NCBI RefSeq assembly: GCF_016907925.1
Contig: NZ_JAFBCZ010000015.1
Coordinates: forward strand, 1-64,000
Source of the DNA: Herpetosiphon giganteus
GTDB taxonomy: Bacteria > Chloroflexota > Chloroflexia > Chloroflexales > Herpetosiphonaceae
Direction: 5' to 3'
DNA length: 64,000 bases
Shown here: positions 4,381 to 57,174 of the stretch, one piece after another
Position numbering within the stretch: the stretch's first letter is position 1
Layout of the letters: each line of letters opens with the position of its first letter
Made by a program: the position numbers and the translations under genes
Notes under the pieces: model-generated
The model's input: only the letters and a program-made list of their open reading frames with translations
What the model was told of the DNA's origin: nothing
Databases searched by the model: none

Positions 4381-4437
4381 TCTCCTCCCTTCCGTCCCTC
4401 CGCTGGAGGGAAACGCAGGGGTTTTCATCCCCTGCAC
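4381..4437 (+). repeat. double-hairpin interspersed repeat, copy 1
   Basis: This 57-bp unit is identical to 4568-4624. It can fold into two adjacent stem-loops: 7 bp TCCCTCC/GGAGGGA with a 3-nt loop (4395-4411), and 7 bp GCAGGGG/CCCCTGC with a 7-nt loop TTTTCAT (4415-4435). Related copies lie at 7349-7388 and 55146-55189. Confidence 0.85.
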
Positions 4438-4850
4438 TCCTAATATTCATGCGGTGGATTGTGTGTATGTTTCTATATCCCCTTCTTCGATTTGGTTGCT
4501 TTGCGTTCTTCGTGTTCTTCGCGGTTTCTTGACCCTGACCCCTGAAATCTGATCCCTCAACAAGATTTCTCCTCCCTTCCGTCCCTCCGCTGGAGGGAAA
4601 CGCAGGGGTTTTCATCCCCTGCACCCCTAATATTTGTTTTATGGATTGTTATTATGTTTCTATCATCCGCCAATTCTTTGTCTGATTTGTCCTTGACTAC
4701 TATTTGTTTTATGGATTGTTACTATGTTTCTGCTTCCCCCTTTTTTCGATTTGTGTGCTTTGCATTCTTCGCGCTCTTCGTGGTTTCTCCTCCTTCGTAG
4801 ACTTCGTGGATCAAAACTTCGTGGTTTCTTGGCCCTGATCCCTATTAAGC
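4438..4850. repeat. low-complexity mosaic repeat spacer upstream of cydA
   Basis: The 4332-4978 spacer has no credible gene. Outside the double-hairpin copies it holds three variants of a tail motif (TATTTGTTTTATGGATTG..., around 4441, 4630 and 4700). It also holds arrays of CTTCGTG/CTTCGCG words (about 4500-4535 and 4755-4828) and CCTGATCCCT-type words (about 4539-4557 and 4832-4843). The same words, in the same order, recur at 7.4-7.6, 14.05 and 37.3 kb. Confidence 0.75.
4568..4624 (+). repeat. double-hairpin interspersed repeat, copy 2
   Basis: Identical to copy 1 over 57 bp, at a distance of 187 bp. The stems fall at 4582-4598 and 4602-4622. As in copy 1, it is followed by a TAATATT...TGGATTGT...ATGTTTCT tail. 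Confidence 0.85.
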
Positions 4851-7304: not shown

Positions 7305-7338
7305 GCTGCGATCCTTATGTTCAGATTTGGAGGATCGC

Positions 7339-7396
7339 CACCCTTCCGTCCCGCCAGCGGGAGACGCAGGGGGTTTTCAGCCCCCTGCACCCCCAA
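7339..7396 (+). repeat. double-hairpin interspersed repeat, copy 3
   Basis: Diverged copy of the element at 4381. Stem 1 is TCCCGC/GCGGGA (7349-7362) and stem 2 is GCAGGGGG/CCCCCTGC with loop TTTTCAG (7366-7388). Relative to copies 1 and 2, a T-A pair in stem 1 has become G-C and stem 2 has gained a G-C pair, so pairing is conserved while the sequence changes. Confidence 0.8.
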
Positions 7397-7625
7397 ATAT
7401 GTATGTGTTGGACTGTTGCAGTGTTTCTCCAATCCCAACCTTCGTGCGCTTCGCGGGCCTTCGCGGTTGAGTCTCTTCCGATTCCAGCAACTAAATACAG
7501 GGGCTGAAAACCTCTGCACCCCCAAATATGTATGTGTTGGACTGTTGCTGTGTTTCTCCAATCCCAACCTTCGTGCGCTTCGCGGGCCTTCGCGGTTGCG
7601 TCTCTTCCGATTTCAGCAACTAAAT
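7387..7625 (+). repeat. tandem duplication of a 110-bp low-complexity unit
   Basis: 7387-7496 and 7516-7625 are 110-bp direct repeats differing at three positions. Each runs from GCACCCCCAAATATGTATG, through a CTTCGTGCGCTTCGCGGGCC array, to CAGCAACTAAAT. The 19-bp joint carries a partial copy of the hairpin repeat. The rest of the 7305-7752 spacer holds no gene that I can support. Confidence 0.85.
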
Positions 7626-8441: not shown

Positions 8442-8476
8442 AAAAAACGCAGGGGTTTTCAAGCCTCCCTGCGTTT
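8442..8476. terminator. terminator hairpin downstream of the acyltransferase gene
   Basis: A perfect 10-bp stem AAACGCAGGG/CCCTGCGTTT is followed on the minus strand by a run of six T. The loop contains GTTTTCAAG, recalling the second hairpin of the interspersed repeat, so this terminator may derive from that repeat. Confidence 0.7.
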
Positions 8477-8499: not shown

Positions 8500-9126
8500 T
8501 TATTCGGCTTTGGGGGCTTTAATTTGAACGGTGCCTTCTTGGGCAGGGAAGCGACCAGCAGACATGCGTTCGTAGAATTCGCGCAACACCGCAAAATCGG
8601 CCTCAATATCGCCGGTTGGGTACAGTAACGGCCCAAAACCCAAGACTTTGCGCTTGTAGTTGATATAGCTCATACCAATCGGAATTTTGGCATTCAAGGC
8701 GATATAGTAAAAGCCTGTTTTCCAGTGATCGGTTGCTTTGCGTGTGCCTTCAGGGGCAACCACCAGAACCAATTTTTCGTGGCGTTCGATCTCATCGACC
8801 ACTTGCTGCACCGCGTTGTAGGTTTTATCGCGGCGAATCGGAATGCCGCCCAACCAGCGCATCAACGTTTTGAAGGGAAAGCGAAACAGCGAATGCTTGC
8901 CAATCCAATAAATTGGCAGTTGGCGCGAAAATGTTGCCAGCAACATCACCGCAAAATCCCAATTGGATGTGTGATAAGCTCCAATCGCGATCCATTTTGG
9001 CTCAGTTGGCACAGTCCCTTCGACTTGCCAACCGACGAGTTTGAGCAACGCTTGGGCAAGCCAACGCAACGGACGGCCTGGTTGTAACGACATCCGCGAT
9101 GGACGAAAGCCACGAAATCGCTTCAT
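8500..9126 (-). CDS. 1-acyl-glycerol-3-phosphate acyltransferase-like protein
   Basis: 208-residue protein of the PlsC/LPLAT acyltransferase superfamily. The catalytic H-x4-D motif is visible as HTSNWD (about residue 52), and the substrate-phosphate motif as APEGTRK (about 125), with a basic, hydrophobic N-terminus suited to a membrane surface. Such enzymes transfer acyl chains to lysophosphatidate or related lipids. This short soluble form with a WKTGFYYIA segment resembles putative phospholipid/glycerol acyltransferases of unproven substrate. ATG at 9126 is preferred over a TTG at 9168 because an AGGAACC site lies ahead. It follows hisS by 50 bp on the same strand and ends at a strong terminator. 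Confidence 0.8.
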   Translation of the reverse strand: MKRFRGFRPSRMSLQPGRPLRWLAQALLKLVGWQVEGTVPTEPKWIAIGAYHTSNWDFAVMLLATFSRQLPIYWIGKHSLFRFPFKTLMRWLGGIPIRRDKTYNAVQQVVDEIERHEKLVLVVAPEGTRKATDHWKTGFYYIALNAKIPIGMSYINYKRKVLGFGPLLYPTGDIEADFAVLREFYERMSAGRFPAQEGTVQIKAPKAE

Positions 9127-9176
9127 TGATGGTTCCTGTTGGGGCGGCAAGCCAACACCTGCCGCCAAAGGCTGAA

Positions 9177-13895: not shown

Positions 13896-14110
13896 GGATG
13901 AAGGATGAAGGATGAAGGATGAGGGATGAACCCAAATGGCAAAAGTCAAAAAGAACATAGGGAGTTAAATTTAACACAGCGGCGCAGAGCGACCGAAGGA
14001 TGAAGGATGAAGGATGAAGCCAAAAGCCTATAGCTCATAGCCGCATCTTCGCGCTCTTCGCGCTCTTCGTGGTTGCTAGCTTTCGTGGCGAAAAATCTCC
14101 CCGATTCCCG
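13896..14110 (+). repeat. heptanucleotide-register mosaic repeat, element 1
   Basis: Five tandem copies of GGATGAA (one variant) occupy 13896-13930, and three more exact copies 13998-14018. An AAAAGTC word is at 13941. A further 7-nt series CAAAAGC, CTATAGC, TCATAGC spans 14020-14040, then a CTTCGCGCT/CTTCGTGGTT array (about 14046-14075) and a CCCGATCCCT word (about 14122). The same blocks in the same order form the element at 37057-37375. Confidence 0.85.
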
Positions 14111-37056: not shown

Positions 37057-37375
37057 GGATAAAGGATGAGGGATGAGGGATGAAAGCAAAAGTCAAAAGT
37101 CAAAAGTCAAAAGTCAGAAAGCAAAAGGCAGAAGGCAGAAGGCAGAAAGCAAAAGGCAGAAAGCAAAAGGCAATAGCCCATAGCTCAAAGCCTATAGCCG
37201 TTCGTGTAATTCGTGCAATTCGTGGCTAAAATAAAGCTTCGGCCCCTTCGTGGAGAAAAATCAAATCTAAATAATCTGTGTGAATCTGTGGCTAAAAAAC
37301 TAAGCTTCGTGCGCTTCGCGTCCTTCGCGGTTTCTAAACCTTCGTCCTCTTCGTGTGCTTCGTGGATCAAATTCG
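37057..37375 (+). repeat. heptanucleotide-register mosaic repeat, element 2
   Basis: Four GGATGAG-type heptamers occupy 37057-37084. From 37088 to 37199, sixteen heptamers follow without a phase break: four AAAAGTC, then AGAAAGC/AAAAGGC/AGAAGGC variants, then AATAGCC, CATAGCT, CAAAGCC, TATAGCC. Three 9-mers TTCGTGTAA, TTCGTGCAA, TTCGTGGCT (37201-37227) and CTTCGTG/CTTCGCG arrays (about 37302-37369) complete it. It fills most of the 36981-37476 spacer upstream of the tetR-like gene. No gene is supported in it. Confidence 0.85.
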
Positions 37376-55029: not shown

Positions 55030-55137
55030 TTCTCACCGGAGTGTATAGTACCATATTTTTCAAATAATGGTGCAGCAATTCATTCAAATCAATCATGCTC
55101 ACATGGTGGATTTATTGATTAAAATAGTTAATCACCA

Positions 55138-55204
55138 CCCTTCCGTCCCGCCTCAAGGCGGGAAACGCAGGGGGTTTTCATCCCCCTGCACCCCCTAAAG
55201 TTTA
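55138..55204 (+). repeat. double-hairpin interspersed repeat, copy 4
   Basis: Stem 1 is TCCCGCC/GGCGGGA with a 4-nt loop (55146-55163); stem 2 is GCAGGGGG/CCCCCTGC with loop TTTTCAT (55167-55189). It is the same element as at 4381, 4568 and 7339, about 50 kb away, between a tRNA gene and an S9 peptidase gene. The rest of 54774-55287 outside the tRNA shows no gene. Confidence 0.8.
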
Positions 55205-55287: not shown

Positions 55288-57174
55288 CTAAAGATACTGA
55301 CTAAAGAAGTCGGTGATGCGGTTGTAGCAGGTCACTTTGTTGGCATATTTCAGCACATCGTGGCCTTCATCGTTGAACAACAGATAATCGACATTTTTGC
55401 CCAGCGCTTGCAACTCGTGGACGACTTCGCGCGATTCTTGCTCGATCACCCGTGGATCGTTGGCTCCTTGGGTTACCAACAAGGGGCACGCCAAATTGTG
55501 AATGTAGGTTTTTGGTGAGCGCTCGACCAAGAAATCCGATTCGGTTACAGGGTCGCCAACTTGGGTCGCCATATAGGCCTTCCAGGTTTCGGGCACGCGG
55601 GCCGAGAAGGTGTGCAAATCATACGGCCCAAACATATCGATCCCAGCTTGCCAAAGCTCTGGATGGCGACCAACCAAGGTTAAGGTCATAAAGCCACCAT
55701 ACGAACGGCCCATTACCCCAGCGCGTTTGGTATCGATCAAGGGATCGTTGGCAAGCACTTTGGTCATAGCATGCACATGATCAAGCCGATCCTGGCCGCC
55801 CCAATCGTGGGTAACTTGGTTCATATAATTAAAGCCATAGCCGCTGCTGCCGCGCACATTCGGCACAAACACCGCGAAACCTTTCAAGGCCAAAAATTGA
55901 ATCAATGGCATCGAGAACCAAGCAAAATCAGGCCGTTCTTGGCCTTGAGGGCCGCCATGAATGTAATAGACCAATGGGCGCGGGCCTTCGTAGCCTAAGG
56001 CTGGGGCTGGGCGATACAATCGCGCGGAAATGCGCAAGCCATCGTGCGAGTTGAACGAGGCATCTTCACCAGCTGATAAATGTTCGACTGGAATGCCTAA
56101 AACCCGTTCGTTGGTATGTTGTTGCAGCTCTTGGTTCGGTTTGATCGTGTAGATTTGGGTTGGAGCGATGGCGGTCGAGAACGAAAGCGCAAAGCTATCG
56201 CTATCTGAATCATAGGCAATCGATTCCAAAACGCCATTATCAAGCGGCGCTTGACCACACAATACTTTAGTAACCAGCATGCGCTTGGTTGCGAGATCTA
56301 GCTCAGCTTCGTAGCACCACGAACAGCCATCGATGTTGTAGCCAAGCAAATAGCGCTGCTCGCTGAGCTTGGTCAAACGATCAAACTCGCCTTGGCCGGT
56401 ATGCACCAAGCCTTCAATCGCAACTGAATCTAAGCTTTGCGAGCCATCAAGCCGCAACAAGGCCAAACTATAGCAATCATCAAATAAGCTCGTGCTAAAC
56501 AAGGCATAATCAGCGTTGACCCATTCGGCAAAACCCATGCCATTTGGCTCGATTGTGGTTGTGCGTTGTTCCATAGGCGTGCCAAAAATAACACTGCGCT
56601 CGGTGCTGCCCAGCTTCTGCCGATAGACCACGGTATCGCCAATGCCATAGGCATCGATGGTCAATATCGTTTGTTGATCGGGCGAAGAAGTGGCATAGAA
56701 TGGGCCTTCAGCGGCAGTAGCGAGTAAGGTTGCGCTACTTTCAAGCACATTAATTTGATAACCGCTAAATTCAGGCCGCGTGCGTGAACTAGCCGTCAAA
56801 TAGCCAATCCCAGTTTTAAGATCGATTTTGGCAATCGTGGTTTGCATTCCGGCAAATTGATCACCGAAAATCAACTCAGGGAAGCCACCAGTGAGGGGAA
56901 TGCGCATTGGCTGATAATTTTCGTCACCATCTTGATCAATCATAACCACAATTTGATTATATTCAGCCAGCACCACGAACGATTTACCATCCATATGGTG
57001 CGGCGTTTGCAAGGCAATATTTGGTGGCAACAGCGGCTCAGGCACACTGCCAGTTAACAACATTCGATACAAACTCAAGCGACCATTCAAATCGCTAATA
57101 AAATACAAATACTCGCCCGAGCGTTGGGGCACAACAAATTGACGGGCGGCAAGTAGGGCTTCGATGCGCGGCAT
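55288..57174 (-). CDS. S9 family serine peptidase (prolyl-oligopeptidase/acylaminoacyl-peptidase type)
   Basis: 628-residue two-domain peptidase: an N-terminal beta-propeller (about 1-360) with repeated strand patterns, and a C-terminal alpha/beta-hydrolase domain. The catalytic triad is visible: Ser in MGRSYGGFM (about 491), Asp in QGANDPRV (about 573) and His in NDEGHDV (about 606), with the oxyanion segment YYIHGGPQGQERPDF. No signal peptide, so it is probably cytoplasmic and cleaves short peptides. AAGGAGAT precedes the ATG. Single gene. Confidence 0.92.
   Translation of the reverse strand: MPRIEALLAARQFVVPQRSGEYLYFISDLNGRLSLYRMLLTGSVPEPLLPPNIALQTPHHMDGKSFVVLAEYNQIVVMIDQDGDENYQPMRIPLTGGFPELIFGDQFAGMQTTIAKIDLKTGIGYLTASSRTRPEFSGYQINVLESSATLLATAAEGPFYATSSPDQQTILTIDAYGIGDTVVYRQKLGSTERSVIFGTPMEQRTTTIEPNGMGFAEWVNADYALFSTSLFDDCYSLALLRLDGSQSLDSVAIEGLVHTGQGEFDRLTKLSEQRYLLGYNIDGCSWCYEAELDLATKRMLVTKVLCGQAPLDNGVLESIAYDSDSDSFALSFSTAIAPTQIYTIKPNQELQQHTNERVLGIPVEHLSAGEDASFNSHDGLRISARLYRPAPALGYEGPRPLVYYIHGGPQGQERPDFAWFSMPLIQFLALKGFAVFVPNVRGSSGYGFNYMNQVTHDWGGQDRLDHVHAMTKVLANDPLIDTKRAGVMGRSYGGFMTLTLVGRHPELWQAGIDMFGPYDLHTFSARVPETWKAYMATQVGDPVTESDFLVERSPKTYIHNLACPLLVTQGANDPRVIEQESREVVHELQALGKNVDYLLFNDEGHDVLKYANKVTCYNRITDFFSQYL

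What the first reader, a model, noticed from the sequence alone, without database searches (positions are those of the whole stretch)
4381..4624. Double-hairpin interspersed repeat with compensatory stem changes
Four copies (4381, 4568, 7339, 55138) can fold into two adjacent stem-loops. Seen directly: stem 1 pairs T-A at its fifth position in two copies and G-C in the other two. Stem 2 has 7 G/C-rich pairs in two copies and 8 in the others. Loops vary freely (GCT, CA, TCAA), while the ACGC joint and the TTTTCA loop core stay fixed. Changes that keep pairing argue for selection on a folded DNA or RNA form, as in REP-like elements or non-autonomous mobile elements, rather than simple recent duplication. 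The terminator at 8442-8476 also contains a relic of hairpin 2, so the element may supply terminators. I do not recognise a published family.
Basis: partly seen in the sequence, partly recalled or inferred. Interest (0 to 1): 0.66.

Follow-up and report, generated by a model that had tools for sequence, protein, structure and literature searches.

The report
Portable double-hairpin core of transposons
The repeat is real: a 60-base piece of DNA that can fold into two hairpins occurs at least 148 times in this Herpetosiphon genome, many copies lie inside small non-autonomous transposons, and the same piece also sits in the tails of two unrelated transposon families in Firmicutes, which suggests a portable module kept for its shape, function not yet known.

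Summary
Confirmed and extended. The window (Herpetosiphon, Chloroflexota) holds four intact copies; a covariance model finds at least 148 in the genome. The stems covary (6 of 15 pairs with changes on both sides; none of 500 shuffles reaches this). Many copies are the core of a MITE-like element ("A2"): about 180 bp, 18-bp terminal inverted repeats CTTWCAAGGGTAGGTTTT, exact 11-bp target duplications in six of 26. A related form (A1) has outer repeats TGTAATGGTTCAT, a family that makes 6-bp duplications. Three of the window's four copies are a third form (B), without recognised inverted repeats, often tandem. Within A2 the core is 98% identical between copies, the repeats about 85%, the spacers 65%. 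It is not a RAYT-moved REP (no Y1 transposase), not an intrinsic terminator (no T tract), and not in Rfam. In Bacillota the same core, extended to about 160 nt, lies in the 3' tails of IS1111-type and IS256-type insertion sequences whose relatives lack it, so it looks like a portable structured module. Type A copies lie preferentially behind genes transcribed towards one side (22/31 and 31/38), so I favour a hairpin acting in 3' untranslated RNA (read-through insulator or 3'-end protector). That function is inferred; spread within mobile elements is well supported.

The parts
4384..4441 (+). double-hairpin core, copy 1 (type B); stem 1 TCCCTCC-GCT-GGAGGGA, stem 2 GCAGGGG-TTTTCAT-CCCCTGC
4571..4628 (+). 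double-hairpin core, copy 2 (type B), tandem duplicate of copy 1
7338..7402 (+). double-hairpin core, copy 3 (type B); stem 1 loop CA
7470..7531 (+). decayed copy in the 129-bp tandem duplication that follows copy 3
   Evidence: D2; 15 bits, E 0.11
55135..55196 (+). double-hairpin core, copy 4; right flank fits neither type clearly; lies between a tRNA-Met gene and the 3' end of the ORF at 55288-57174 (-)
4440..4474 (+). type B right flank CTAATATTnn..TGGATTGT..TGTTTCT
   Evidence: (D3)
4627..4661 (+). type B right flank
   Evidence: (D3)
4697..4731 (+). second copy of the type B right flank without a core
   Evidence: D3
7394..7428 (+). type B right flank
   Evidence: (D3)
7523..7557 (+). type B right flank of the decayed copy
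   Evidence: D3

Best explanation
The repeat is the conserved core of a family of small non-autonomous mobile elements. Shown: it is interspersed in every sampled Herpetosiphon genome; type A2 copies are bounded by TIRs and, in part, by 11-bp target duplications; A1 copies look like A2 elements nested in a second TIR family (TGTAATGG..) that makes 6-bp duplications; the stems covary; the core is more conserved than the element's own ends; in Bacillota the same core (within a module of about 160 nt) sits as an accessory piece in the tails of two unrelated IS families. Inferred: A2 moves by a DDE transposase acting in trans, and the core is cargo kept for its folded form. Most likely function, inferred: a GC-rich hairpin pair in the 3' untranslated region of the neighbouring gene or transposase, which hinders transcriptional read-through or protects 3' ends and so makes the insertions tolerable. 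How the folded form acts, and what moved the core between element families, is not shown.
For: Copies: at least 148 in the genome; 120 exact-pattern hits with 0 for the reversed pattern; present in 6 of 6 Herpetosiphon genomes and 0 of 394 other Chloroflexota. Mobility: A2 has TIRs and six exact 11-bp TSDs; counting at least 9/11 matches, 7 of 26, shuffled mean 0.9, maximum 5. The outer TIR family has 6-bp TSDs: at least 5/6 matches in 20 of 47, shuffled mean 3.2, maximum 10. Sites differ between species. Structure: 6 pairs with changes on both sides, covariation score 0.111 against 0.046 shuffled, and sliding the partner destroys it. Constraint: in 17 A2 elements core identity is 0.98, TIRs 0.87/0.83, spacers 0.65/0.67; the stretch not forced by the search pattern is 0.987. 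Portability: inside IS1111-type IS and inside IS256-type IS, with the far TIR seen in two of three copies. IS256 relatives at about 69-77% identity, and IS1111 relatives at 56-58%, have tails without it. 3'-UTR orientation: right-hand neighbour gene on the - strand in 22/31 and 31/38 type A copies; same arrangement for the IS256 transposases, two plasmid ligase-like genes and an Alicyclobacillus gene.
Against: Type B, the commonest form in the window, shows no TIR and no orientation bias. In IS1111 the core has the opposite orientation to transcription, so a single-strand RNA role is not uniform. Wobble changes do not single out one RNA strand clearly (A-C 24, G-T 9 on the + strand, partly one inherited Firmicutes change). 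Neighbour genes were called as ORFs, not from an annotation. Flanks used for the 11-bp TSDs are C-rich.
Confidence: 0.6

Rival explanations
1. REP/REPIN-type repeat moved by a RAYT (Y1 tyrosine) transposase.
For: Short palindromes, high copy number, intergenic, tandem clusters, as in PMC3116915.
Against: No Y1_Tnp in the genome while the control genomes ring; no GTAG tag; CGTC REPs have A-T pairs at the foot of the stem (PMC3733652), here the stem is T-A then C-G; A2 has TIRs and 11-bp TSDs instead.
Confidence: 0.05
2. The core is the guide (seekRNA/bridge RNA) of an IS1111/IS110 element, and the Herpetosiphon copies are orphan guides.
For: In Paenibacillaceae the core lies in the non-coding region downstream of an IS1111-type transposase, where seekRNAs map (PMC11187229).
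Against: IS1111 relatives without the core keep a tail up to the conserved right end; the core is also in IS256 elements; this genome has no IS110 transposase and the Herpetosiphon IS110s that exist have no core nearby; A2 makes TSDs, which I do not expect of IS110/IS1111 elements (own knowledge).
Confidence: 0.08
3. Intrinsic transcription terminator.
For: Strong GC-rich hairpins near gene 3' ends.
Against: No T tract on either strand; no terminator-like hit at the copies.
Confidence: 0.1
4. A trans-acting or regulatory non-coding RNA gene that is duplicated widely, related to Rfam Clostridiales-2.
For: Covariation; sub-threshold matches of three window copies to RF02937 on the - strand (E 0.04 to 0.35); Bacillota module of about 160 nt with further covarying helices.
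Against: No Rfam hit at gathering score, no hit genome-wide with RF02937 (whose controls were silent too); lies inside MITEs; more than 100 copies.
Confidence: 0.12
5. Neutral recent duplication; pairing is kept only because copies are young.
For: Tandem copies at 4381/4568 are 90% identical over 98 nt; some clusters are tandem duplications.
Against: Core 98% while spacers are 65% identical within the same elements; compensatory changes between subfamilies and phyla.
Confidence: 0.05

Closest known systems
Bacterial MITEs (non-autonomous derivatives of DDE insertion sequences)
   Same: Short, non-coding, TIRs, target-site duplications, high copy number, intergenic
   Different: Carries a central double hairpin that is better conserved than the TIRs and that recurs with other TIRs and in full-size IS elements; parent IS not found
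REP/REPIN elements (GTAG and CGTC superfamilies)
   Same: Intergenic palindromic repeats, compensatory stem changes, clusters
   Different: No RAYT in the genome, no GTAG tag, two different adjacent hairpins with conserved unpaired bases, TIRs and TSDs in type A2
IS1111/IS110 non-coding region with seekRNA/bridge RNA
   Same: Structured non-coding DNA downstream of the transposase gene
   Different: Core is an accessory piece: absent from relatives and present in IS256 elements
Rfam RF02937 Clostridiales-2 RNA
   Same: Similar order of motifs GGGGUGCAGGGG..CCCCUGC....GACGGAAGGG on the - strand
   Different: Scores far below the gathering threshold; lead only

Membership tests
Bacterial MITE | terminal inverted repeats | tested here: met
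   A2: CTTWCAAGGGTAGGTTTT at both ends; A1: TGTAATGGTTCAT. Not met for type B.
Bacterial MITE | target-site duplication | tested here: met
   A2: six exact 11-bp duplications; outer TIR family: 6 bp; both above shuffled controls. Many single copies have none left.
Bacterial MITE | no coding capacity, short length | tested here: met
   About 170-195 bp (A2) and 213-374 bp (A1), too short for a transposase
Bacterial MITE | shares ends with an autonomous IS | tested here: inconclusive
   None in 1.85 Mb held; the rest of the genome could not be searched
REP/REPIN | RAYT transposase in the genome | tested here: not met
   PF01797: 0 hits, controls positive
REP/REPIN | GTAG or CGTC tag with the family's stem rules | tested here: not met
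   Consensus against PMC3733652
IS1111/IS110 seekRNA | DEDD transposase next to the element | tested here: not met
   Absent from this genome; present only in some Bacillota copies
IS1111/IS110 seekRNA | guide bases match both strands of the target | not tested
   Guide and target were not analysed
Intrinsic terminator | hairpin followed by a run of T | tested here: not met
Rfam Clostridiales-2 | score at or above the gathering threshold | tested here: not met
   22.9, 21.8 and 19.7 bits against 58.6

The most novel reading that the evidence does not exclude
The core is a portable structural cassette that passes between unrelated mobile elements and phyla: it entered the 3' tails of IS256- and IS1111-type insertion sequences and the middle of Herpetosiphon MITEs independently, and is kept there because its folded form helps the carrier or protects the host from read-through.
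Probability: 0.35. Interest if true: 0.78.

Novelty: new variant of a known kind. Interest (0 to 1): 0.6.

Why it matters
MITEs are normally thought of as two ends with a dispensable middle. Here the middle is the most conserved part, covaries, and recurs in insertion sequences of two other families in another phylum. That makes it testable whether mobile elements share structured accessory parts, and what such a part does at the 3' ends of genes. It also gives Herpetosiphon genomes, whose intergenic DNA is full of undescribed repeats, a first anatomy.

Tried and rejected
RAYT/REP. IS110/IS1111 bridge RNA as the whole explanation. Intrinsic terminator and the relic at 8442-8476. Rfam families, gathering and relaxed. 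Phage or viral carriage: no hit in the phage collection or IMG/VR. Search for the autonomous partner of A2 or A1 in held sequence: TIR pairs 0.6-4 kb apart that I inspected enclosed non-transposase ORFs. Literature searches by name and by letters gave no description. Strand assignment by wobble pairs gave no firm answer. A pattern search of the window gave nothing because the pattern was too long for the 7-pair copies.

Full report
What is there. The window belongs to a Herpetosiphon genome (contig 15 of 85, 6.16 Mb; genus). They share CCCTTCCGTCCC, stem 1, GGGA(A/G)ACGCAGG, stem 2 and CCCTGCAC. Folding gives two stem-loops on the + strand.

How many. An exact pattern finds 120 copies with none for the reversed control. 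A covariance model built from 12 copies of two phyla finds 148 at E <= 0.001, where at most 150 candidates were scored, so this is a lower bound. The pattern is in all six sampled Herpetosiphon genomes (17 to 120 copies) and in none of 394 other Chloroflexota.

Structure is under selection. On 79 distinct sequences 93.9% of cells pair, six of 15 pairs show changes on both sides, and neither figure is reached by any of 500 shuffles; sliding one arm by one base destroys it. Pair 16-26 occurs as G-C, U-A and C-G. The alignment was fitted to the model, which favours it, and relatedness is not removed by the shuffles; but the sliding control keeps relatedness. The unpaired strings CTTCCG and ACG are invariant too, so sequence and fold are both kept.

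The element around it. Copies fall into forms by flank. A2 elements are about 180 bp with TIRs CTTWCAAGGGTAGGTTTT. Six carry exact 11-bp target duplications, among them CTAGCCACCAT and CATCCCCTCTC; counting 9 of 11 matches or more, 7 of 26 against 0.9 in shuffled pairs, maximum 5. A1 elements carry outer TIRs TGTAATGGTTCAT; that TIR family makes 6-bp duplications: 20 of 47 with at least 5 of 6 matches against 3.2 shuffled, maximum 10. A1 still contains the right end of A2, so I infer that it is an A2 nested in that second element. Type B, to which three of the window's four copies belong, starts directly at the core and has no recognised TIR; it often lies in tandem. Sites differ between species, with insertions or replacements in intergenic DNA, but clean empty sites are few.

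The core is special. In 17 A2 elements mean pairwise identity is 0.98 in the core, 0.87 and 0.83 in the TIRs and 0.65-0.67 in the spacers. Loci were found through a core pattern, which biases this; but the 27 core columns outside the pattern are 0.987 identical. Two elements with A2 ends enclose a different palindromic core, CCCTCACCCC..GGGGTGAGGG, so ends and cores are not strictly coupled.

The same core elsewhere. In Cohnella and Paenibacillus it lies in the 3' non-coding region of IS1111-type elements. In Brevibacillus and Geobacillus it lies in the tail of an IS256-type element, between the transposase stop and the near TIR; the far TIR was recognised in two of three. It also stands alone, in two cases about 230 nt behind a ligase-like gene on plasmids. 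In Bacillota the shared module extends to about 160 nt with further helices, one of them with several compensatory changes. Relatives show that it is accessory: three IS256 relatives (about 69-77% identity) run from the stop codon to the TIR without it, two carry a different structured tail, and three IS1111 relatives (56-58%) lack it.

What it may do. It has no T tract and is no intrinsic terminator. Type A copies are oriented: the gene on the right is transcribed towards the element in 22 of 31 copies here (p = 0.03) and 31 of 38 in other Herpetosiphon (p = 0.0001); these sets may share orthologous sites, and with a stricter ORF cut-off the first falls to 18 of 27 (p = 0.12). Type B shows no bias. 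The IS256 and ligase cases have the same arrangement, IS1111 the opposite. I infer a hairpin acting in 3' untranslated RNA, as an insulator or 3'-end protector; transcription was not tested. Wobble changes lean to the - strand (24 against 9) but part of this is one inherited change.

What it is not. No RAYT, no IS110 transposase in this genome, none of the Herpetosiphon IS110s has the core beside it, no Rfam family at threshold, no phage or viral hit. Rfam Clostridiales-2 resembles it below threshold and stays a lead. I found no publication describing it; subscription journals are mostly not in the library.

Verdict. As an element it is a new MITE-type family. The unusual part, at 0.35 probability in its strong form, is a structured core that travels between unrelated mobile elements.

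Noticed in passing
L249, L257, L261, L246 and others; 109 TIR ends in H. aurantiacus: A second MITE family with TIRs TGTAATGGTTYATYGSRTTRAC, a palindromic core CCCTCACCCC..GGGGTGAGGG, 170-180 bp and 6-bp target duplications.
   Followed up: partly
L061:544-733, L115:265-460: Elements with A2 ends but the CCCTCACCCC core instead of the double hairpin: ends and cores appear to be exchanged.
   Followed up: partly
L272 and L274, downstream of the IS256 transposase: Two Geobacillus IS256 elements carry another long structured tail (GTCAAGGAG..CTCCTTGAC) where relatives carry the double-hairpin module or nothing.
   Followed up: no
window:45985-46274: Rfam 5_ureB_sRNA match (73.9 bits, gathering score 40) on the + strand, over ORFs on the - strand.
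   Followed up: no
window:4498-4534, 4757-4793, 14046-14082, 37304-37340: Another interspersed repeat, about GCTTCGTGCTCTTCGCGTTCTTCGCGGTTTC, often next to type B copies.
   Followed up: no
window:8447-8474: Terminator-like hairpin ACGCAGGGGTTTTCAAGCCTCCCTGCGT with a T run on the - strand, behind the ORF at 8500-9168 (-); also present in a relative.
   Followed up: partly
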